A stretch of DNA of 64,000 nucleotides from Oidiodendron maius Zn (taxonomy: Eukaryota; Ascomycota; Leotiomycetes; Myxotrichaceae): assembly GCA_000827325.1 (NCBI GenBank), contig KN832879.1:310001-374000 (forward strand), in the 5' to 3' direction. Position numbers and translations under genes: made by a program. Shown piece by piece: positions 51,292 to 64,000 of this stretch. Numbering within the stretch: position 1 is the first letter of the stretch; every line of letters begins with the position of its first letter. The notes under the pieces were generated by a model that searched no databases, was not told the DNA's origin, and saw nothing but the letters and a program-made list of their open reading frames with translations.

Positions 51292-52080
51292 CGCTATGCT
51301 CTTCGCAAAGCAGTAGATGATAATTTTCTATTCATCTCTGACCGTAGACGGTATCATGTATTATAGATGAGCCGCAAGAGAGCAGGTCGAATCCTGCTAA
51401 GAGCGTAGAAGAGAATTTAGAGGCTACAATTTTACTTGTTGAGCCATTTTCTTCCATCATGAACATCACCCATGTCTCTAATAATTTAAGGGCCGAGAAC
51501 CCCTTGAATTACACTAGAACATATCGTGTCAGCTTGCTCTGACAGTGCCGACTGGGAAAGAGTGGGCAGGGTTTCTAGAGCTGGACCACGGTCGCTGTGC
51601 ATAGGTGAGGGAGGCCTTGCTAGTCTCATAATAAAATGGGTTGAACCTGCATTCGTGACACCGTATCAAAGGATCTTCTTAGTTTTGGGCTGGTAAAGGG
51701 ACTATTTCGGTTGCAATTTCAGCCGCAACCATCTCAATACATACCCGGGTGTCAGCAAAGCCGATGTCAGCAGCACTACTAGTCGAATGTGAGATACCCC
51801 TTACATTCGCTGCCTAGGATAAATGATTGCGATTTCCACGCCTTGTTGATCGTCCAGCTCTCAATGTACATAACCCCCCTCACCATAGAACCAAGTTATC
51901 CTCCGGTAAACTCCCACAAACAAGTTCTTGGCTTCCTGCCTCCCGCTCTACGACGTGAAATCGCTACATGACTCCTATATAAGGTGAGTACTGGAAAGTC
52001 TGGAATAAGGCTTCCTGTGCCTGCCAGTCAATTCCCAACTGCACAATTTGATATCCCCTTGCATATAACTTAATACTGTC
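51292..52080. other. Intergenic boundary of core and accessory blocks
   Basis: 3' flank of the WD40 gene and promoter of the Diels-Alderase-like gene. Nothing coding seen; no clear repeat marks the boundary. Confidence 0.4.
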
Positions 52081-53318
52081 ATGAATTTTCGCAACGTGGC
52101 GCTCGTCGGCGCGCTATGCGCCTCAGTGCAGGTCGTCCTGTCCGCCCAGACTCTCACTGTCTCGAATACTATTGCATCTGGCGCCAGTATTGCACAATAT
52201 ATTTCAGGCTCTTCCGGCCTAGATGGGCCCAAGATGTCCCCAGAAATCAATGCCACCAGCTTCGACTGGTGGTACTTTGATGCCGTGGCAGAAGACGCCT
52301 CTATGGGCCTCGTCGTCGTCTTCTATCTCTCCACAGACCTCGGATTTCCATTTGTGCCGCCTCTTTCTGCGCTCTCGGTTGACATCTTTGCTACCTTTGA
52401 AGATGGCACTCTTGTATTCCTGCCCGAGAACGATCTGCCTCTACAGGCTGGAGCGGCAACTATTACCACGGATGGAGATGGAGCTTCCGGGGTCTGGAAG
52501 GGAACTGGTTTTGAATTCTCAGGAACTCCAGATCTGTCTAGCTACAAGGTCACAATTGACAACCCTCTGCTCGGAATCACTGGCACTCTTGAATTGAAAT
52601 CAGTACGTATTGAATTCGGCTATGTGTGCTGGTTCTAACCAAATTTCGGCTAACGAAAGGCCCTGGCAGGTCGCCCCAGCTCATTATGCCTGTGGTCTTA
52701 ACCTGCCCGGTCAAAATCTCGAAGTATCCCCTCACATTGGGTGGGCAAATGCTATTCCTGATGCAGATGCTGTTGCAAACTTTACCATTCTTGGTAGACC
52801 GCTTCAGTTCAAGGGACCTGGGTACCATGACAAGGTAAGATTCCTCCATAATTCTAACTTCCATAGTGCAATTAAAACTCCGGGACTAATGCAAATAGAA
52901 TTGGGGTGATGCTCCCTTCACTTCACAAGTCGCAAGTTGGTATTGGGGCCATGGAAGGTTGGGCCCGTACTCCATTGTCTGGTTTGATGTCCTTGGGAAG
53001 GATGGCCAGGAATACGTTAGCAGCTATGCCGCTAAAGATGGACAGATCATCACTGCGTCTTGCTCCGGAATCAAAGTGCGTCCCACTGGGCAGAACTCCC
53101 AGTATCCACCGGTCATTACGTCTGGAAACCCGCAGGGCTTCCATATCGATCTAGACCTAGGCAGCGAGGGAATGTTGGAAGTTGATATCGAGACTAATAT
53201 TGCTCTCGCCGATGCTATCCTCTACACGCGGTGGTCTGGGAATATGTCTGGAGGCGTCCAAGGTGGACCTACATACACGGGTGTTGCCCTGTATGAGGAG
53301 TTTAAGTTCGAATTGTGA
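52081..53318 (+). CDS. CrtC/hydroxyneurosporene-synthase-like protein, fungal Diels-Alderase family (368 aa)
   Basis: Lipocalin-like two-domain family that includes fungal Diels-Alderases of polyketide clusters and carotenoid hydratases. Three exons: 52081-52602, 52670-52834 and 52899-53318; 1107 nt in frame. A hydrophobic leader (MNFRNVALVGALCASVQVV, cut near SAQT) suggests entry to the secretory pathway. The N-terminal domain carries SFDWWYFDAVAEDASMG and VVVFYLSTDLGFPF. The junctions restore LELKSVAPAHYACG and GYHDKNWGDAPF. The C-terminal domain contains ASWYWGHGRLGPYSIVWFDV and ends TGVALYEEFKFEL. These W/Y-rich segments match the family. The reaction cannot be inferred without a partner synthase. 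It appears whole, unlike its neighbours. Confidence 0.75.
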
Positions 53319-53654
53319 AATTATAGCCGTCTTCGAAATATGAATTTTGATGAGCTGCAAAAGGCCTTGACCTAACACACAATTTTCGTAAGACCCAGGA
53401 TGATTCGGTTTAAGATCAACTTCTATCCATAGCTTCCATGTATCCTGCTCAGAAATACACACCTGTAAATCAGAGAACGGTTAGTAGGGGACCTTCTCAG
53501 CTGTCGCTGCTATAACCTCAGGCAAAGGAGAGTATTCACGGGCATGACCGAGCCAGTCTGAGCGTTACAATAGTGGCACTCCGCAGTCTTCAAAGAAAAG
53601 AATAAGACAGATTAAATAACTAGAGTAAAGGATACATTATATTCGTATTTCGTC
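53319..53654. other. Short intergenic stretch
   Basis: Downstream flank of the Diels-Alderase-like gene; convergent with the zinc-finger relic. No signal seen. Confidence 0.35.
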
Positions 53655-54295
53655 CTACTTCAACCCTTTCCTGCTCACATGCCTTCGAGGACAGTGCGCC
53701 CTCTCATGCCTCTGTAGATATTCCTTTCTCTCAATCGATTTACCACAAAAGTTGCAATTCGCTCTATCCTCCCCTATATGATCTTTCAATTGCCGTTTTA
53801 GATTCGCCACCAGGATACTTTACTTACAGGTCGGGCACATGCGTCTAGAAGATGTGAGGAGGATGATTATGAATGACAGTAGAGCGAAGGAAAAGGAAGA
53901 AAAAATCTTAGGCAGTGGGACAATAGATGTTCTCACCCAGGTTTCTGGCGCTGATTTGCTGAGGTTGAGGTTGTATAGCGTCTGGATAGGGCAGTGAAGA
54001 ACTCGGCAAATTACCCCCGACACTAGGGAAATCCTACAAGCTCGGCATGAGATGTTGATTCGCCCTTCGCTGACTCGACAACTACACTATCAGAAGATAT
54101 GGCTTTAATTAGCTTCAATGCCCCAGATGCTCGTTTACGGTTATTCCGTGGACAACGAATTGGCTGCATATTTAGAATTCCACCTCTGCAACCACCATGA
54201 TATATCGCAATCCAAGAACTATTAACGTACCAAATGTCGATATCCTCACGCTTTTGTTCGGTTAGGAATGTGCCCAATCTTGACACCAGATACAA
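53655..54295 (-). pseudogene. Decayed C2H2 zinc-finger gene
   Basis: Minus strand. The last exon keeps a good finger (CNFCGKSIERKEYLQRHERAH) and a basic tail ending RRHVSRKGLK. The finger before it starts CPTC but has an in-frame TAA (53820-53822) two codons after its second Cys and Gln where the first His is expected (LKRQLKDH). Upstream pieces (RKRASGALKLIKAISSDSVV, PYPDAIQPQPQQ) look coding and are split by plausible introns, but no ATG start is evident. It may have been a regulator for the neighbouring enzymes; that is inference. A gene with an unrecognised intron around the stop is the alternative. Confidence 0.5.
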
Positions 54296-54303
54296 ACTAA
54301 CAG

Positions 54304-56069
54304 GATGAAAATCTGACAGAACATGAAAAGTGTGGCGCCAGGGACGATTCCCTCCTCCATGCTGATGCTGCCAACCCAGAGCGATGCATTACAAAATCTC
54401 AGGCAAGAAATTTGACAAAGCGGATCGCCTATGGACTCCGATATGAATATGGTATTGGGGTTAATGGACCAGGGAAGGACGTTATGATGGTGATATGTTC
54501 AGGGCAAGTCTTTCTGCCAGTACTTTTCTACGGCGTGATTGCGGCAGGCGGTATCTACTCTGCAATCAGCGTAGGGGCTACTGTGACTGAATTGGCAATC
54601 CAACTTTTGCAGAGCCCAGTCAAACTCTTGGTATGCAGCCAGGACACAAGAGAGGTTGCTGTTAAGGCCGCCGAGAAATGCGGATTGGAAGAGTCAAAGA
54701 TCTTGATGTTGGAGTCAAGTGCAGAAGTCAACTTGAGAAACCTACTAACTGGAAGGAGTTGTGTTTCAGAGAAACAACTAAGCTGGAATAAAATTACTAA
54801 CCCTGCTGAGCTTGAGAATTCGTTAGTTTGCTTGCTCTATTCATCTGGGACGACCGGTCCTCCAAAAGGTACGCCCTTCTGTGCGCTATGAAAATAGAGA
54901 ACGCAAGTTTCGTTAATATATGGAAGGTGTTCGTTTGTCGCACATGAATCTCGTATCACAAGCAGTTCTTCCTGGTGATTTGGTCAGATAAAAATGGAAG
55001 AAAGATGAGGCTGCCGGAGAGCCGACCTTCGAATATCGGACCCTAGCTCATCTCCCAGTCGCTCATATTGCAGGCCTCCAGGGATATCTGGTGAACCCAT
55101 TCTATGCTGGGGGACTAGTTTACTGGATGCCCAGATTTGATTTTCAACAGTTCCTCGATTACAACAGGAAGTACCGCATTACTATGTTATTTAGTGTTCC
55201 GGCTATTTACCTCCTGATCGCAAAGTCATCGCAAATCACTGATCAGTTCGATACGTTAAAGCTTGCTCAAAGTGGTGCAGCTCCGCTAGGCCCAGAGGTT
55301 CAGAAAGCCGCCAGCGTCAAGCTTGGAAAGGGACAAACCTTTATCACCCAGACTTGGGGACTGAGTGAGACAACTGGTAGTGCAAGTTCTAATTTATGGG
55401 GCCCAAAGGATGAGACTGGAAGTGTGGGTCTATTACTGCCAAATTTGAGTTTCAGGTATGTTGAAGTCAAATTTTGCCTAATTCTTCAGCAGCTGACACG
55501 AAATAAAGACTTGTGGACGATACGATGAAAGACATTGCACCAGGTATGCAAGGTGAGGTACTCATAAAGGGACCGGTTGTCTCAAAAGGCTACTACAATA
55601 ATTCTAAAGCGACGGTTGATTCCATTAGGGACGGCTGGTTGTGCACTGGTGATATTGGGATTCTCCGTGACGAAAAGCTGTATATTGTAGACCGTAAAAA
55701 GGTAAGAAGCCGACTGGACTGCATATATATCTGCCAATTAACTTGCTACAGGAACTTATTAAATACAAAGGGCATCAAGTTGCTCCTGCAGAGCTTGAAG
55801 CCTTACTCCTGTCACATCCTAAGATTATGGATGCCGCTGTAATTGGTGTTGAAGGCGAAAGCACAGAACTACCTAGAGCATACCTGGTAGCCGACCGGAC
55901 TCAAGTGTCTGCAGATGAGATACATAAATTTGTTAACAGTGCGGTGGCTAGGTACAAGCAACTACGAGGAGGCGTATTCTTCATCGACGAGATACCCAAG
56001 ACGGCATCTGGAAAAATTCTGCGGAAGGATCTAAGACAATTAGCAGCTCGTACTAGATCAAAGTTATAG
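54304..56069 (+). pseudogene. Acyl-CoA ligase (ANL superfamily, 4-coumarate:CoA ligase-like), broken
   Basis: Adenylate-forming ligase that would activate a carboxylic acid as CoA thioester. Exons seen: ~54304-54868, 54927-55455, 55509-55701 and 55752-56069, with sound GT-AG joins. Motifs: LLYSSGTTGPPKG (P-loop, A3), TWGLSETTGSASS (A5), GWLCTGDIG (A7), [20 protein letters not shown] (A8) and PKTASGKILRKDL (A10 Lys). Two defects: an in-frame TAA at 54989-54991, just after LPGDLVR, and no ATG-led N-terminus; the usual first ~40 residues are missing. The catalytic core is otherwise well kept, so loss may be recent or strain-specific. A sequencing error at the stop would still leave the 5' end unexplained. 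Confidence 0.75.
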
Positions 56070-56336
56070 ATCGTAGATACTTGTGGCTGGAAGAAAGATT
56101 GGATTTTAAGCTCTTGCTTCCCAAAAGGTGTCTGAAATAATACCTCAATCCATATTGGAGATATAATACACAGCTGTAGAATCATGAGCATCATCTAGTC
56201 AATACTTCCAATATTCAGCACGCAAGGCATAGTGTGAATCAATATGAAGCCATATTAGGATTCAGTAAAATTGGACTAGGTATACAAAAGACCACGTCAA
56301 ATTCAGAACCAAATTTATGCCCACATCATAGTTGCT

Positions 56337-58263
56337 TTACAAGAGTTTTGCGTTGAGTCTTCGTCTGAAAAATAACGCCCCAGCTGCCAATGAGGCGGCT
56401 CCAAGTATTGCAACGGCGGTAGTCATACTAAATCTTGTCTCTTCCACAACCCTGCCAATGTAAGTGTTCTTGGTAGGCACTAATCCCTCTGCAGTTCCGT
56501 CGCTGTCGTAGTCATTCCAATCAACGACGCTGAGGGTCTTCTGATACTCAACGACGGTTCCCCACCAATTATTTGTAACAACACCATCCTTCGTCTTGTA
56601 CCAACTGTTGCATCTCGGGTCTGCGAAGCTTGTCTTCGCTAGGATACCTTGAATCTGGTCGTTGAATTCCTTCACCCTCTTCGTCTTTGGCGTCAAGGCA
56701 AAGGTCTTACCGGACTTCCGCACATTTAGAACCGTATTTATCATAGTGGTAATGTAACGGGATTGCATCTCGATCATAAGAATGATGCTATTGTGCCCTA
56801 AGTTCGTATTTGGGCCATAAAGCATGCCGAAGTTTGGCAAATCTTCCACTGTCACGCCGTAAAGTGCTCGAGCGTGGCTCTTCCATATATCAGAAAGACT
56901 TCGACCCTTTCGGCCCATAATTTGGAGGGGGTACATGAAATCGACTGTGCGAAATCCAGTGGCTAGAATAATGAGGTCGAACTCATATTCTTTTTTATCT
57001 TTGACCATGATACCCTTGGGGGTAACTGCTTCAATTGCTTTAGTTTCCAGGGTGACATTTGCTAGGCCTAAAGCAGGGAAAATGTCATCTGAAATGATAA
57101 CACGCTTGCACCCTGTTGGATACTTTGGGGTTAGCTTCTCCCATAAATCAGGTCTGTTCGGTAGCTGTGTCTCCATTAACATCTTGTGTGCCCGCTCCGT
57201 CCGTATGGCTGACTCTGAACCTGGCTTGCTAATTGACTCGTGAAGAGATTCTCGGAAGTCCATCAGAGCCGCTCGATATAGTTGACGAACTGGCGGAATT
57301 ACATTGTAGAGCTTCTGTCGGAGAGGCGTAATTGCACGATCCATCCTTGGGACAACCCAATTTGGTGTACGCTGGAAAACTACCAGGGATTCTGCTAGCT
57401 CTGCAAGTTCAGGGATTGCCTGAGCCGCTGTAGCTCCATTGCCAATTATCCCAATTCTTTTCCCTTCCAAATTATAAGTCCAATCCCAGCGCGCTGAGTG
57501 TATCATCTTCCCCTCGAATGAGTCCAGACCAAGAATATTAGGGTAGTTAGGCTCGTTTAGCTGGCCCATGCCAGAGACGAGGTAGTCTGATGTCATGGTA
57601 TAACTGGAGTTGTATTCTGAATCCTTCCCACCCAAGACCTTGATGGAGACTTTCCATCTCTTCTCCTCGTCATCCCAGGTAGCTCCTTCAACGGCAGTGT
57701 TGAAACGCGCATAACGGTAGAGATTCCATTTTGCTGCCACTGACCTCAAATAGTCCAAGATTTCTTCCTGTGCGGGATACTATAGTCTATACATTAGCTC
57801 AAGTTTTCCAGTTGAGAAATCTTACATCTCGCCATACCTCTCGGCTCCAGTTTGGGTTTTGCTCGAAAGAATAGCTATAGTGGCTGGTATCAGATGATGT
57901 AACCAAAAGCTTTTAGCAGTAGAACTCACCTGTACAGATGACTCCAGACTATTTTCGTCAGCAGTGTTGCGCAATGGAGGCATTGGTTACAATTTACTAT
58001 CACAACATCCGCCTGGATATGTGTTATCCCTCCATGTCCCGCCAAAACCACTGGATTTCTCGACTATTACAAAATTTTGGCAGTTGTATCGCCGAATAAG
58101 ATCAATCGCCACACACATCCCTATTCACATTAGCATAAACAGAATGTTAAGACGCAAGCTCGAGTTGAAACACACCCGAGATCCCCGCGCCTATGATAAC
58201 AACCGCTGCATTGGTATGCTGCCTGTTTCCGACAGGCACCTGCGGCCATGAAGTCACAGCCAT
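56337..58263 (-). CDS. Flavin monooxygenase, Baeyer-Villiger type, with C-terminal membrane anchor (569 aa)
   Basis: FAD/NADPH enzyme that inserts oxygen next to a ketone or hydroxylates a substrate. Five exons: 58263-58176, 58120-57998, 57948-57930 (19 nt), 57874-57838 and 57779-56337; 1710 nt in frame. Motifs: FAD site VVIIGAGISG (~21-30), GGTWRDNTYPG (~56-66), SHLYSYSFEQNPNWS built across the 19-nt and 37-nt exons, the BVMO fingerprint FEGKMIHSARWDW (~177-189, FxGxxxHxxxWD), NADPH site GIIGNGATAAQ (~199-209) and the ATGF motif (ILATGFRTVDF). A hydrophobic segment at ~540-560 followed by RRRLNAKLL looks like a tail anchor. The gene looks intact. The substrate is unknown; a secondary-metabolism role is inferred from neighbours. 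Confidence 0.88.
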
Positions 58264-58880
58264 CCTTACAAGAAAACTGCAGCTTTCCCCTGTCAAATAG
58301 CTGTGATGAAGTCGATTCCGAGCTCTCCAGATATATTTCGAGCCTGACGACTCTGAGAGAACAAAAGTATAGCTTAGCCATGACGACAAGTCCTGGTCAG
58401 GAACTGCTCCGGTGCGCCAAGACAATGCGCATCCCCGCAGTTGGTCTGAATCAATATTAGGGAATCATTACTCGGGCCCTGCCGAGTGCCGTCAACCTCG
58501 GGAAGATGTCAAGATGTGCGAGTCAGTACTTTTAGCTTTCGGGAAGCTGCCTCGATTCCCCGCTACAAATCCCCTGCCGAGTCGACCTGTGCACGTCAGC
58601 ATCCTAAACAAACGATTTACTAAAAAACATTCCTAATTCATAAGTTTCAAGGATATGTATAGGCGCCAGAAACTGTTCCGTGAACACTGCTTTGGGACAC
58701 TGTCACTGCAGGCTTGCCAACACCGATAGAAATTACCCCGCGCTAATATCTCAGCTACCTTTTCTACGCTGTCAACGTGAAATATACAACAATTCATTAT
58801 TTGCGCTTTGGATAGACATCAAGATCTTCCAGGCTTATTAGAATATCGGCCGCAATTAATATTAAGGCAAGATAGTTACT
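58264..58880. other. Intergenic between BVMO start and ADH relic
   Basis: BVMO promoter region and AT-rich sequence; no gene seen. Confidence 0.35.
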
Positions 58881-61800
58881 ATTCCAGAACATCACAAGGC
58901 CGCCGTGTACGCCGAGCCGAGAAAGCTTCTGACCAAAATAGAAACAGTTGACACTCCTGAGCCTGGGCCTGGAGAGGTCTTGGTTAATATGTAGGCTTAT
59001 AACCCATTTACGCATGTGTGATTCCTAGCTTAATTTATGAAATTCTAACACCCATTCGGGCGTGTGCCATAGTGATCTTGGTGTTATGACGAATACCTGG
59101 GTAGCCTTGCCTTACCCAACCCAAAAAGGTCAAGTTGGGGCCATGAGAGCATCGGCAAGGTGGTCAAGCTTGGACCTGGCGAAGAATCATCAGGAGTAAT
59201 GGTTGGGGACCGAGTTGGCGTGAAATGGATTAGTTCAATTTGTCAGTGCAACTGTCAACCAGAATATGCTTCAATAAATTGACGACGCCCTATAAATGCT
59301 GATATCCTTTAGGTGGAGCATGCCCGGCATGTTTAGAAGGCGCAGATGGTCTTGTATACTGCCACGCCATTCCACAGAGCAACTGGCATTGATAATTTAC
59401 AATTATATCCTATCGTCTATCCCTGCGTGGCGAAAAGCCCACTGCACCAAAAAAGAAAATGATAGGTACTTTTGCTTTAAGCATCTTAAAATCTATGCAC
59501 ACAAAAACACCTCCTAAATTTTGTTATAAGTCGTGTTCCGCGGCCATTCCTGAATACTCTGAACGCCTATCACTGGAAAATTACGTTCGTATCGTCGCCC
59601 TTATACTTGATTCGAGAAGAGTCTCCCTTTTTAGCATAGTAGAATTCTTTTCCTATAGCTCTGCCACCGAGATCTTCCTATGCTCGCAATGACCACAAAT
59701 ACTAAATCTATCTCCCGGTCCCTCTTTGCAAGCGAGGAGTCGCAAGAGCACAACTACCTCTATGACCCTGTTCCAGCAGATACATACAGTTTCCTCGAAT
59801 GATTAGCCAAATATCTTGGTATTGGAACAGCTAATGCTGTCCGAGAATGGCTAAACTCCCCTCAATTCAAACCAACTTATGAAACATTATATAACACTGT
59901 CATTCTTCCGCGAAAGAGACATAGACCTAGCCTCCAGGGTCCAAAACTGCCTGCCGTCCAGACAGCTATATGCGATGGTGAGATGCACGGTGATGAGAAG
60001 AACTCTGCGCATGACTTGGACACATCCACATTTGAGGATATAGACCATTACGCTTTGTGTCTATACCGGCTTCGCGATAAATCCAAAGTATCACGGGGTG
60101 GCATATTTAGAGATAAGCAGATGACAGACAGCCAGATTGATGCTAGATTATTGCAAGCAATGCTTCGAGGAGGACTAGATCGATGTAAGGCAAAGGCATC
60201 TAAAAAGTCTACTCAAGAAATTATTCATCATCAGCCGATTATATTCTCTGACAGCCAGCGAGAGACACTGTCATTATAGCGATGGCGCTACCTACAGGAG
60301 CGCCACCGAAAATAAGGATGAAGATATGAATGATGGCCTCGAAGACGACGCTGTCGTAGTAGATATGGTGAAGCAAGAGCTAGTGGCAACCAAAAATCCC
60401 AAAAACCCATTCGATCTCAATACTCCATATGGTCAATACGCCTGCATTAAAGCTGTACTGACGCAGTGTAATAAGAAGCTACGCCTCCACAAGTTAGTAC
60501 GAAAGCCTGATGTTGATCCGATGAAGGATGCAGAAGCACTACAGCTCCTCCTAGTCTTGGGACTATGACACAGGCTCGCGGCCGCTCTCGGCGAATCGGG
60601 CAACTTTTAGCAGTTGAAAACTTTGAACTCTCAGTACCTAAATCATTCTTTGATCGGGTTGTTCAAAGTACAATCACAAAGTCTCTACCAGCGGCTATAG
60701 CTGAACTTGCTATTAATGCCCAGGAAGTTGAAGATGGAACGACTAATGACGATATAAAGAGGATCAATATTGATCAATGGTTTCTTATCGATGGCGAACT
60801 TATTCAAGCCCCAGACCCACGAGTTGACCATCTACCACCGAGCCGGAAGCTTACGCCAGACAGCTTCCCTACTGCTTTAATGTTAACTACTCGTGGTGCT
60901 GCAATTAATACAAAGGACAAGCAGGAGGAGAATTTGGACCAGTTTGTTTGCCATTAATGATATTTGAGGGCCATTGAGCTTAATGGGCTATTCTCAAGGT
61001 CCGCAGATTAGTTCTATTCATCTCTACAGACTCTGCTTACAACCTTAGGTGCCTTCTCCCAGAAGTTTGGAAAGGAGATTGATCTGAATGGTAGCATTCA
61101 AGAACTGATGGCTAGGCTGACGATAGCGTGGGACCAGTTGCTAGCATAAGGGGAATGATGCAAGATCTTGCATTCGTCTTATAACACCATAAAGATTAAT
61201 TAATAGATCCACTAGGTTATTGAAGTGGCTTTCTAATAAATTCCTTTCTCCTCATTTCTTATTTTATCATGTACTGTACATGTTCTCTAGTGAAGGCTTC
61301 TCCAATCTCCTTACTAGCCCTTTAAGCTCAACATTCGCCTTGCAGCCTGCCAATGTGATCGCATTTGCGACCTTATCAAGTCGAAGGAAAACCGAATTAA
61401 TTTTGTAATTAAAGCTCCTAAACAAGGGCATTTTATAAGTATAAGGAGCTCTACAATATTGTATGATGTTACGATCCTATATTGATCATTGCTCTAAGGA
61501 AGGATTCGTTAAGGAATGCGGGTCCGAAGTTTTCTTAGACATTACAAAACACGATGATAAGAGCATAGTGGAGGAGGTCGAGATGACAACTGGTGGCCTC
61601 GGGGCCTCTGCTGCTATGGTTTGCACTGCCAGCAATAAAGCTTATGCTCAAGCGATAGATTTCTTGCGGTTCGGCGGCACCCTTGTCTGCGTCGGTGTTC
61701 CAGAAGGGAAGCTAGAACCTATTGCATCAGCATTCCGACTAGTGTAGTCTTTCTGAGGTCCTCGATTTTGCTGTTCGAAGAGTAGTTAAGATCCACACTC

Positions 61801-61949
61801 GTATCGAGCCTCTGGAAAAGCTAGATGATGTTAGTATAATCAACTCTACTGATACTACTCCAAACGCTGATGACCCCTTGGTTTATTTTTAGGTATTTCA
61901 GGAAATGTCCGCCAGCAAATTGGTCGGCAGAGTAGTGATTGCTCTGTAA
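58881..61949 (+). pseudogene. Zinc-type alcohol dehydrogenase, split by a ~2.1 kb interruption
   Basis: The 5' part (58881-59363) encodes ADH pieces: VDTPEPGPGEVLVN, HSGVCHSDLGVM (catalytic zinc Cys), GHESIGKVVKLGPGEE, GDRVGVKWI and GACPACLEGADGL (structural zinc). At least one frameshift occurs before GHESIGK. The 3' part (61463-61949) resumes at the Rossmann fold (IDHCSKEGFVKECGSEVFLD, GGTLVCVGVPEG) and ends VFQEMSASKLVGRVVIAL-stop, after a further break between 61747 and the last exon. The middle (~60-90 residues, including the first strand of the NAD fold) is absent and replaced by unrelated sequence. It most resembles class-I fungal ADHs (ADH1-like). Confidence 0.8.
59364..61454 (+). other. 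Inserted segment with unrecognised ORFs inside the ADH relic
   Basis: About 2.1 kb that does not belong to the ADH. It carries three consecutive plus-strand coding-like stretches (~59694-60279, 60326-60568, 60565-60957; about 190, 80 and 130 codons). The first is already interrupted. Their products are Lys/Asp/Glu-rich and hydrophilic, with phrases such as GTANAVREWLNSPQF and SRRIGQLLAVENFELS; I recognise no family, catalytic motif or transposase signature. I found no convincing terminal repeats or target duplication. It could be a worn mobile element or captured gene fragments. Confidence 0.5.
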
Positions 61950-62618
61950 GAAGCATTACAAAATTGTTATATCTAGTGAGATATATATCACATGTAAAAA
62001 ATCAATTTAAATTGTTACTGCAAACCATATCACAAGTCGTAAAAGAACAAAAGTCAAATACACCTCGGATAAAGGACTAGGCGACCATACATTACACCTT
62101 GTACTGTAAGAAAACGGAGCTATTGGTATCTATCCTTCCGCCGGAAGTTTCGGATTATACTTAACCTCCGTTACAGATCTTCTATTTTCCCACTATAATC
62201 AGCGTTTTGACATCTCCATGTGACAGAGCCAATATCAAAAAGGGGAGCTTGGACTTAAGCGAGGAAGGGGGTCAGCACGTGACTAATGCACCCCGCCTCA
62301 ATTTCGGATATGGTTCGGCTATACACTTTAGAGCAAGTCTTATGGCTTCCTTTCCGCTACATCACTATTCATGTGTCACTACATTTCTGACTTGATAGGC
62401 TAGGGATTGCCATCAGCGAGGCCCAGGATGTTTCATCTCTCCAAACCTTTCTAGGTTGTTGCACATCCGCGGGATGCCACGTCTCCGCTCTAAACCATAC
62501 AGTATCTACCGTATCTGAAGTCACGTAGCTACCGGCACAGTATATATAGTACAACTGTTCGGTAATTTAAGCCGTCCCATTTTAAGATACTCTACTCTTC
62601 CGAAACTGAGTCTATAAC
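61950..62618. other. Intergenic upstream of the MpaB-like gene
   Basis: AT-rich promoter region; small frames here have no motif. Confidence 0.4.
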
Positions 62619-64000
62619 ATGTCATTTTCCTATCTTACTTCCACTGCATCCGCTTCGGACGGAGGAGACATTCGAGAGATATGGGGCTATAAGTTTCGTT
62701 GGACTGATCTACACCTCACTGAGGAGCAGCTCAAGCCGTCAAGATATTCATATGACACCCTAGGTGAAGAAGTGCTAGACCGCGTTCGTGCGCGGCAGAT
62801 GTTGAAGAATTCCAATAATGGGATTCCAGCGAGCCAAAAAGATGGACATAAAGAGGACTTATATGAATCGCTGAAGGCTGCAGCATTGTCGAAAGAAGAC
62901 GAAGTTCTAACTAAATTTTGGGCTGATATACATTCTGTTCCCGACTGGGTTGATTGGGACCAGATCAAACGTGGACAAGATGTGAGAGGAACCTCATTTC
63001 AAATGACCATAAAATACTAATATATCCTGCAGGTGTTCTATAGATATGGAGCATCGGCCTTGACAGGCCTTACATTTTCCAGTCTTCTGGGAGGAATGGT
63101 ATGGATGCCTGTGTTGTATGCAGGATTATTCTGACGGGACAAGGGCGCAGCACGTATTGTCGAAACATTAGTTCGAACAGGAGGATTTGCTCCCAAGGTC
63201 GCTCGCAAGAGAATGCACGTCAACTCCTCCCAAAGATTCTTCGTTGTCAGACGGCTTGCTAACACCACACCCAGGTTAGAGACGGTTCAGCACACATTAC
63301 AGGTACTTAGCTGTCACCCTATAATCTTGACTCGGCGCGCTAAACGTAACTAACTCTGGTCCTCCACAGTGCACGGATTCCCTACAATCAATCCAGCCCG
63401 GTGGTGAAGGACACATTGCTTGTATCCGTGTGCGCATGCTCCATGCTGCTGTTCGCAAGAGAATCCTCAGCCTCACGAAGACTCGGCCGCAGTATTATGA
63501 TGTTGAATCCTTTGGCGTGCCTATTAACGATCAGGATTCCGTGGCCACGTTATCCACGTTTTCGGCTCAGCTGATCTGGTTTGCCTTGCCGGCACAAGGC
63601 ATTTTCATGAAGCCCGATGAAATTCTCGATTACATTGCATTATGGCGCCTAGTAGGTTACTACATGGGCTCCCCGACTGATGTGATGGAATCCCCTGAGG
63701 TGATCAAAGCATATATGGAAAGCATACTTATCACAGAGCTTGACCCAAGTCAATCGAGTCAGGTACTCGCGGGCAATATTATCCACTCTCTCGCCAACCA
63801 GCCACCATCATATGCATCTGCAGACTATCTCTGCGCCATGGCCCGCTGGCTGAACGGCCCATATCTCAGTGATGCGCTGGATATTCCTAAAGCATCTCTA
63901 TTAACCAACTCGCTTGTCGCTGTCCAGCTCTTGGTACTCGGAATTTCGACCTATATTGCCAGAGAGGTCTCGGTTTTGGATAAGTGGAAGATCAGCTACC
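62619..64000 (+). CDS. MpaB-type (DUF2236) ER-bound oxygenase-like protein (3' partial)
   Basis: Family of MpaB, an oxygenase that cleaves the farnesyl chain in mycophenolic acid biosynthesis, related to latex-clearing proteins. Exons: 62619-62981, 63033-63098, 63144-63214, 63275-63302 and 63370 to beyond the window. Motifs: SVPDWVDWDQIKRGQDVFYRY across the first splice, LTFSSLLGGM-GAARIVETLV across the second, SIQPGGEGHIACIRVRMLHA (conserved core), FGVPINDQDSVATLSTFS and YIALWRLVGYYMGSP. The third intron (63215-63274) seems to start with GC (AAT|GCACGT) and end CCCAG; removing it gives KRMLETVQHTLQ, the family pattern, whereas reading through adds 20 residues with no counterpart. No break is seen up to the window end. 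Confidence 0.82.

What the first reader, a model, noticed from the sequence alone, without database searches (positions are those of the whole stretch)
52081..64000. Apparent secondary-metabolite gene block in decay
Seven accessory genes lie side by side: Diels-Alderase-like protein, C2H2 regulator, acyl-CoA ligase, Baeyer-Villiger-type monooxygenase, zinc ADH and MpaB-like oxygenase plus an inserted segment. Three look whole, three are broken. The set is typical of tailoring functions in terpenoid or polyketide clusters, but no PKS, NRPS or terpene synthase is in view. Whole and broken genes alternate, so loss seems gene by gene, not one deletion.
Basis: partly seen in the sequence, partly recalled or inferred. 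Interest (0 to 1): 0.7.

Follow-up and report, generated by a model that had tools for sequence, protein, structure and literature searches.

The report
Decaying accessory enzyme genes in fungus
A small island of fungal metabolic genes seems to be falling apart one gene at a time, and it may be a pathway for breaking compounds down rather than a broken factory for making one.

Summary
The gene block is real, in a 45.9-Mb genome judged fungal. Spliced models show three intact genes: Diels-Alderase/AsqO-like (368 aa), Baeyer-Villiger monooxygenase (BVMO, 572 aa) and MpaB/Lcp-type haem oxygenase (472 aa, ending beyond the window at 64,260). The acyl-CoA ligase has one in-frame stop in 550 codons; splice sites and an SKL ending remain. 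The zinc ADH is dead: five lesions, including a ~2.1-kb insert with two repeat families. The C2H2 gene is weak.

Staggered loss fits a simulation if ADH has been neutral for a few percent of divergence; at 1% each gene alone is unremarkable.

The secondary-metabolite reading is not supported: ketosynthase, condensation, terpene-synthase (PF19086) and UbiA families have no match on the 1.78-Mb contig. Some paralogues recur in pairs: MpaB + ligase on C9, ADH + BVMO on C46. Seven cross-family pairs lie within 15 kb (0.67 expected under a lenient null), but from only four places.

Best reading: an accessory oxidative-catabolic block in gene-by-gene decay; substrate and direction are inferred. Other fungi could not be searched. 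A known kind of feature of modest interest.

The parts
52081..53318 (+). Diels-Alderase/AsqO-like gene, 3 exons, 368 aa, hydrophobic signal-peptide-like N-terminus; intact
   Evidence: Pfam DA_N 8.2e-20 and AsqO_C 1.8e-57; splice model, GT-AG introns of 67 and 64 nt. Signal peptide judged by eye.
53655..53849 (-). weak remnant of a C2H2 zinc-finger gene; stop in first finger, second finger keeps C2H2 spacing (by eye)
   Evidence: frames; Pfam zf-C2H2 E 4.7e-4, 20.9 bits, below cut-off 25.2
54197..56069 (+). acyl-CoA ligase (4CL-like), 5 exons, 550 codons, one in-frame stop (codon 226), C-terminal SKL (PTS1-like)
   Evidence: Pfam AMP-binding in three pieces (the third below cut-off) and AMP-binding_C; splice model; 69% identical paralogue on C9 over one exon
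56337..58263 (-). Baeyer-Villiger monooxygenase, 5 exons, 572 aa, FxGxxxHxxxWD motif, C-terminal hydrophobic segment; intact
   Evidence: Pfam FMO-like 2.2e-15; PDB matches to cyclohexanone/phenylacetone/steroid monooxygenases; splice model. Motif recalled and read by eye.
58878..59349 (+). 5' half of zinc alcohol dehydrogenase pseudogene (no start codon, acceptor AG missing, frame change)
   Evidence: ADH_N 1.9e-15 on hand-joined pieces; alignment to C46 paralogue
59350..61480 (.). insert: dispersed short repeat (59350-59682) followed by degenerate pieces of a SNF2-helicase-like repeat family (59745-60229 and 60544-60932), rest unassigned
   Evidence: 92% match to a C5 copy starting at 59350; 86% match of 60009-60229 on C12; C7 relative encodes SNF2-rel_dom and Helicase_C
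61481..61949 (+). 3' half of the ADH pseudogene, with a deletion and frame change between 61732 and 61758
   Evidence: ADH_zinc_N 1.3e-11; alignment to C46 paralogue; last exon read by eye
62619..64000 (+). MpaB/Lcp-type haem oxygenase, 5 exons, 472 aa; intact, ends at 64,260 beyond the window
   Evidence: MPAB_Lcp_cat 2.5e-18; splice model; His aligned to LcpK30 chain position 198 in a weak pairwise match (E 0.29)

Best explanation
The block is an accessory oxidative-catabolic gene island between housekeeping genes. Proposed mechanism: the MpaB/Lcp haem oxygenase cleaves a C=C bond of an isoprenoid-like or other unsaturated chain to an aldehyde and/or methyl ketone; the BVMO converts a ketone to an ester; the alcohol released is oxidised by the zinc ADH; the resulting acid is activated by the SKL-tagged ligase for peroxisomal beta-oxidation. 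The DA/AsqO-like protein would act outside the cytosol, role unknown. The block decays gene by gene: ADH died first (repeat insertion plus further lesions), the ligase gained one nonsense change later, and DA, BVMO and MpaB are intact. Paralogues elsewhere (ligase on C9, ADH on C46 and C3) could cover the lost steps. Shown: gene identities, intact or broken frames, absence of four tested backbone families from C10, some paired paralogues. Inferred: substrate, order of reactions, direction (breakdown rather than synthesis), order of loss, complementation.
For: Gene identities. Whole models. No match of four backbone families on C10; 20 downstream ORFs scanned (one search counts 72 non-redundant ORFs of 100 aa or more) include no PKS, NRPS condensation or terpene-synthase domain. 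The ligase exon has one close relative in the genome (69%; next 37%); it and the window ligase each lie 5-7 kb from an MpaB-family gene, a family with three matches, and the C9 pair has an acyl-CoA dehydrogenase beside it. ADH and BVMO paralogues lie 4-5 kb apart on C46 with an alpha/beta-hydrolase, an aldehyde dehydrogenase and a Zn2Cys6 regulator, a set that fits BVMO-based ketone breakdown (recalled). Seven cross-family pairs within 15 kb, window block left out, mean 0.67 in 4000 random placements, none of which reached 7. Lcp cleavage leaves aldehyde and methyl-ketone ends (PMC5522427, abstract start in the listing); MpaB followed by a peroxisomal acyl-CoA ligase is established in mycophenolic acid synthesis (PMC11934065 and PMC12591190, passages); yeasts break down a methyl ketone by Baeyer-Villiger oxidation (PMC4192553, abstract).
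Against: No hydrolase or aldehyde dehydrogenase was recognised in the window block, so the module is incomplete there. Pairing is partial: of the two close ADH paralogues only C46, not C3, has a BVMO match near; of the close BVMO paralogues C46 has an ADH within 15 kb, C14 and C20 do not; of the two other MPAB genes C9 has a ligase near, the C1 one has a ligase-like match 31 kb away. Four of the seven pairs come from one region (C9 1.433-1.455 Mb, matches of only 25-41% identity), three of them sharing one ADH-like match, so there are four places; four against 0.67 is roughly P 0.005 (my arithmetic). The null places loci uniformly and ignores the general clustering of accessory genes. The window MpaB exons gave no tblastn match to the C9 MpaB region at E 1e-3, so these two are related only at the Pfam-family level. 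C46 is only 57.9 kb long, so absence of a backbone gene there says little. MpaB + ligase is also biosynthetic in mycophenolic acid. BVMO's best NCBIfam match is PtlE, a sesquiterpenoid-antibiotic BVMO, far below its cut-off (156.8 of 1100 bits). Among 80 bacterial BVMO loci (kept of 561), ligase relatives lie near in 19, acyl-CoA dehydrogenase in 19 (both in 9), aldehyde dehydrogenase in 3, ADH, hydrolase, MpaB and AsqO in 0; controls 0, 0 and 1. All 19 ligase loci are in Streptosporangiaceae-type genera, so few independent events.
Confidence: 0.42

Rival explanations
1. Remnant of a terpenoid or meroterpenoid secondary-metabolite cluster (mycophenolic-acid-like chemistry: MpaB cleavage, ligase, BVMO tailoring) that has lost its backbone gene or uses one elsewhere in the genome.
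For: The family set is typical of tailoring genes; partial, pseudogenised MPA clusters are known in Eurotiales, and mpaB lies outside the cluster in A. pseudoglaucus (PMC11934065, passages). Fungal clusters commonly carry nonsense and frameshift variants: 23 of 33 clusters in A. fumigatus (PMC5711037, passages). BVMO resembles PtlE weakly.
Against: No ketosynthase, condensation, PF19086 or UbiA match on C10. The nearest ketosynthase is about 300 kb from the C9 MpaB-ligase pair, and none is on C46, a 57.9-kb contig.
Confidence: 0.3
2. Unrelated accessory genes gathered by chance in one permissive island between housekeeping genes, each with its own fate.
For: Flanking genes are mostly housekeeping (Rpb2-type subunit and a weakly WD40-like protein upstream; Nrd1/Seb1, citrate synthase, mitochondrial carrier and P-type ATPase downstream); genes lie on both strands; the seven other AsqO_C loci take part in none of the pairs; window and C9 MpaB are only distantly related.
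Against: Ligase-MpaB and ADH-BVMO pairings recur elsewhere in the genome.
Confidence: 0.26
3. Not exclusive of the others: the ligase stop is a sequencing or assembly error or a strain polymorphism, so only ADH (and the doubtful C2H2 gene) is really lost.
For: It is the only lesion in 1653 coding bases; all splice sites and the SKL end are kept.
Against: None found here; no read data are held, so it could not be tested.
Confidence: 0.2

Closest known systems
Mycophenolic acid pathway (MpaB/MpaB' oxygenase followed by a peroxisomal acyl-CoA ligase)
   Same: MPAB-family oxygenase and an SKL-ending acyl-CoA ligase near each other; C=C cleavage before CoA activation is the same chemical logic
   Different: no ketosynthase or UbiA match on the contig; PbACL891 is encoded outside the MPA cluster; block adds BVMO, ADH and a DA/AsqO-like gene; no direct comparison with MpaB itself was possible
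Bacterial latex clearing protein (LcpK30), DUF2236/MPAB_Lcp family
   Same: Pfam domain; proximal haem histidine conserved in the alignment
   Different: weak pairwise score (E 0.24-0.29); no secretion signal obvious by eye; activity unknown
BVMO-based ketone catabolism (ADH - BVMO - hydrolase)
   Same: BVMO and zinc ADH adjacent and divergent; the C46 paralogues add hydrolase and aldehyde dehydrogenase
   Different: no hydrolase recognised in the window block; ADH is dead; the C46 set is only inferred to be catabolic
Pseudogenised fungal metabolic clusters (A. fumigatus strains; partial MPA clusters)
   Same: nonsense changes or lost start codons in metabolic clusters
   Different: here one genome only; no population data

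Membership tests
fungal secondary-metabolite cluster | backbone synthase in the cluster | tested here: not met
   0 matches on C10 for PF00109, PF00668, PF19086, PF01040; DMATS, type III PKS, triterpene cyclases, RiPP precursors and other terpene-synthase families not searched
fungal secondary-metabolite cluster | several tailoring-type enzymes side by side | tested here: met
fungal secondary-metabolite cluster | cluster-specific regulator | tested here: inconclusive
   C2H2 remnant below cut-off; bZIP (26.0 bits, cut-off 27.6) and DUF3425 ORFs at about 68.2-70.0 kb in window numbering, outside the window
mycophenolic acid cluster | mpaC PKS and mpaA UbiA prenyltransferase present | tested here: not met
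   no PF00109 or PF01040 match on C10
MPAB/Lcp oxygenase | MPAB_Lcp_cat domain above cut-off with proximal haem His | tested here: met
   67.4 bits against 23; His aligned to position 198 of LcpK30 (weak score); Arg/Thr of the distal site judged by eye only
MPAB/Lcp oxygenase | haem binding and C=C cleavage activity | not testable with these tools
   needs purified protein
type I Baeyer-Villiger monooxygenase | FMO-like domain, two Rossmann motifs, FxGxxxHxxxW(P/D) fingerprint | tested here: met
   sequence read by eye; PDB matches; fingerprint recalled
peroxisomal acyl-CoA ligase | adenylation domains, PTS1 end and an open frame | tested here: not met
   domains and SKL end are present, but the frame holds an in-frame stop at codon 226
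BVMO ketone-catabolic module | hydrolase together with BVMO and ADH | tested here: not met
   no hydrolase recognised in the window block; alpha/beta-hydrolase domains near the C46 and C14 paralogues

The most novel reading that the evidence does not exclude
A fungal catabolic island in which an Lcp/MpaB-type haem oxygenase feeds a BVMO and a peroxisomal ligase, i.e. a fungal route for oxidative breakdown of isoprenoid chains, caught in mid-decay while paralogous modules in the same genome keep the steps that were lost.
Probability: 0.14. Interest if true: 0.55.

Novelty: new member of a known kind. Interest (0 to 1): 0.27.

Why it matters
Blocks of tailoring-type enzymes without a backbone gene are easily read as broken secondary-metabolite clusters. 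Here some paralogous pairs in the same genome point to breakdown chemistry instead, and the uneven lesion counts give a worked case of one-gene-at-a-time loss. If the MpaB-BVMO-ligase chain were shown to work, it would link the Lcp/MpaB oxygenase family to catabolism in fungi.

Tried and rejected
Rejected: a stop in MpaB (it lies in a 45-nt intron of the model); a disrupted BVMO (four GT-AG introns give one open frame of 572 codons). Decay by RIP is not indicated: over the twelve 1-kb bins from 52,001 to 64,000 TpA/ApT is 0.65-0.97 and (CpA+TpG)/(ApC+GpT) 1.08-1.49; two bins (55,001 and 61,001) exceed the usual TpA/ApT limit of 0.89 (recalled), none passes the second index (below 1.03, recalled). 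Structured RNA: 0 Rfam matches at gathering score in 52-64 kb. The match of the AsqO_C exon to streptolysin O among PDB sequences (E 0.0044) is taken as chance.

dN/dS of intact against broken genes was not done: the paralogues at hand are 54-69% identical. No structure was predicted. Literature: 7 searches; I saw passages of four papers and the abstract of one, the rest only as listings. 'AsqO' had 0 occurrences in the 20 papers listed of 143.
Full report
Where it lies. The species could not be named: a 5.8S rRNA search gave 0 matches, with only 39 of 1307 candidates scored. Introns, Zn2Cys6 and AsqO families and genome size say filamentous fungus (inference). Upstream of the block are an Rpb2-type RNA polymerase subunit (40.6-43.5 kb) and a protein with weak, below-cut-off WD40 matches (to 51.3 kb). 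Downstream, in fetched sequence and window numbering, come a DUF3712 ORF, a DUF3425 ORF and a weak bZIP ORF (65-70 kb), then Nrd1/Seb1 (71 kb), citrate synthase (75 kb), a mitochondrial carrier and a P-type ATPase. The accessory stretch is thus about 18-20 kb wide.

The genes. DA/AsqO-like: 52,081-53,318, 3 exons, 368 aa, no lesion. Ligase: 54,197-56,069, 5 exons, 550 codons, one in-frame TAA at codon 226, four GT-AG introns, SKL end; by eye the C9 paralogue aligns without a gap across the stop and has no intron there. BVMO: 58,263-56,337 on the minus strand, 5 exons, 572 aa, no lesion, PDB matches to cyclohexanone, phenylacetone and steroid monooxygenases. ADH: dead. MpaB-like: 62,619-64,260, 5 exons, 472 aa, no lesion; its seeming stop is inside a 45-nt intron of the model, and one intron is GC-AG. 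Its His aligns to LcpK30 chain position 198 (pairwise E 0.29), the proximal haem ligand, conserved in all of 495 Lcp sequences aligned in PMC5522427 (passages). The C2H2 gene is weakly supported.

ADH in detail. Against the C46 paralogue: no ATG between the preceding in-frame stop and the conserved start of the protein; no AG at the acceptor of exon 2 (by eye); a change of frame where C46 has an intron; replacement of about 90 codons by the insert; and a deletion with frame change in the last third. The insert begins at 59,350, where a dispersed repeat of about 330 bp starts (308 of 334 positions identical to a copy on C5). Of 39 non-self matches, 32 fall in this repeat, 31 of them at 68-77% identity; the list is a lower bound (40 of 42 candidates scored). 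The insert continues with degenerate pieces at 66-69% identity to a C7 locus; one piece falls in a 678-aa frame that matches SNF2-rel_dom and Helicase_C, the other in a 235-aa frame without a family. A 221-bp piece is 86% identical to a place on C12.

Staggered loss. A simulation (1500 runs per point; two thirds transitions; 0.1 indel per substitution, three quarters of them frame-breaking; these rates are assumed) asked how often each gene would show as few lesions as observed. At 4% neutral divergence: DA 0.0073, BVMO 0 of 1500, MpaB 0.0027, ligase with one lesion or fewer 0.0087. At 2%: 0.09, 0.02, 0.053, 0.128. At 1%: 0.33, 0.13, 0.21, 0.47. Simultaneous release is therefore rejected gene by gene only if ADH has been neutral for roughly 2-4% or more. 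ADH's age is uncertain: about 740 coding bases remain, and under the same rates its two frame changes alone suggest about 2.5%, all five lesions about 6% (my estimates, not computed in a call, and the simulation does not model insertions or lost start and splice sites). The 8% difference between the two repeat copies allows about 4% per copy but is no lower bound.

No backbone gene. Genome-wide family searches put 0 of 98 ketosynthase, 0 of 35 condensation, 0 of 8 PF19086 and 0 of 5 UbiA matches (exon pieces) on C10 (all first-look candidates were scored). Twenty downstream ORFs were scanned; one search counts 72 non-redundant ORFs of at least 100 aa there. No backbone domain appeared, apart from one AMP-binding ORF of 554 aa at about 105-107 kb, which gave no other family. 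Dimethylallyltryptophan synthases, type III PKS, triterpene cyclases and RiPP genes were not searched.

Paralogous modules. The ligase exon has one close relative in the genome, on C9 (69%; the next of the 11 matches, self included, is 37%). It lies about 5 kb from one of only three MPAB-family matches and next to an acyl-CoA dehydrogenase. Against this, the window MpaB exons gave no tblastn match to that C9 region at E 1e-3, so the two MpaB-type genes are distant. The ADH's close relatives are on C3 and C46 (67% each); BVMO's are on C14 and C46 (56 and 55%) and, split in exons, on C20 (42-58%). On C46, ADH and BVMO lie 4-5 kb apart with an alpha/beta-hydrolase, an aldehyde dehydrogenase and a Zn2Cys6 regulator; the C14 BVMO has a hydrolase nearby but no ADH match; C3 has no BVMO match. 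A further set of weak matches (two BVMO-like, one ADH-like, one ligase-like, 25-41% identity) lies on C9 at 1.433-1.455 Mb, and an ADH-like with a ligase-like on C1 at 258-264 kb. Counting pairs of different families within 15 kb among 32 BVMO, 10 ligase, 6 ADH, 2 MPAB and 7 AsqO loci (exon matches merged by hand, window block left out) gives 7 against a mean of 0.67 in 4000 random placements, none of which reached 7. Four of the seven come from the C9 1.433-1.455 Mb region and three of those share one ADH-like match, so there are four places; four against 0.67 is roughly P 0.005 (my arithmetic). The null treats the genome as one string and ignores the general clustering of accessory genes. 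The seven other AsqO loci take part in none of the pairs.

Bacterial relatives of the BVMO. The 19 ligase loci are all Nonomuraea, Planobispora, Planomonospora, Streptosporangium or another Streptosporangiaceae member, so they are few independent events. This supports a link to acyl-CoA metabolism only weakly.

Reading. MpaB cleavage followed by a peroxisomal ligase is known from mycophenolic acid synthesis (PMC11934065, PMC12591190; passages), Lcp leaves aldehyde and methyl-ketone ends (PMC5522427, abstract start), and Baeyer-Villiger oxidation of a methyl ketone is known in yeasts (PMC4192553, abstract). A simple chain that uses four of the five recognised enzymes (all but the DA/AsqO-like protein) is breakdown of an unsaturated, perhaps isoprenoid, compound. 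This direction is inferred. A decayed biosynthetic cluster remains the main rival; partial pseudogenised clusters and loss-of-function variants are common in fungi (PMC11934065; PMC5711037).

Verdict. Observation largely right, with corrections; staggered loss supported conditionally; secondary-metabolite label not supported. An ordinary kind of genome feature with a mildly interesting enzyme combination.

Noticed in passing
window 59350-59682: Dispersed repeat: 32 of 39 non-self matches fall here, one at 92% (C5), the others at 68-77%; no Rfam match in 52-64 kb. Family unidentified.
   Followed up: partly
L051 (C7:1532201-1536300) and window 59745-60932: Multi-copy SNF2-helicase-like gene family with degenerate fragments at several sites; could be part of a mobile element.
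   Followed up: partly
G000 C9:1433269-1455229: Two BVMO-like, one ADH-like and one ligase-like match (25-41% identity) within about 22 kb; not fetched.
   Followed up: no
L046-L047 (C46:20971-33198): Hydrolase, ADH, aldehyde dehydrogenase, BVMO and Zn2Cys6 regulator side by side: possibly a ketone-breakdown cluster.
   Followed up: partly
window 63215-63274: GC-AG intron in the MpaB-like gene model.
   Followed up: no
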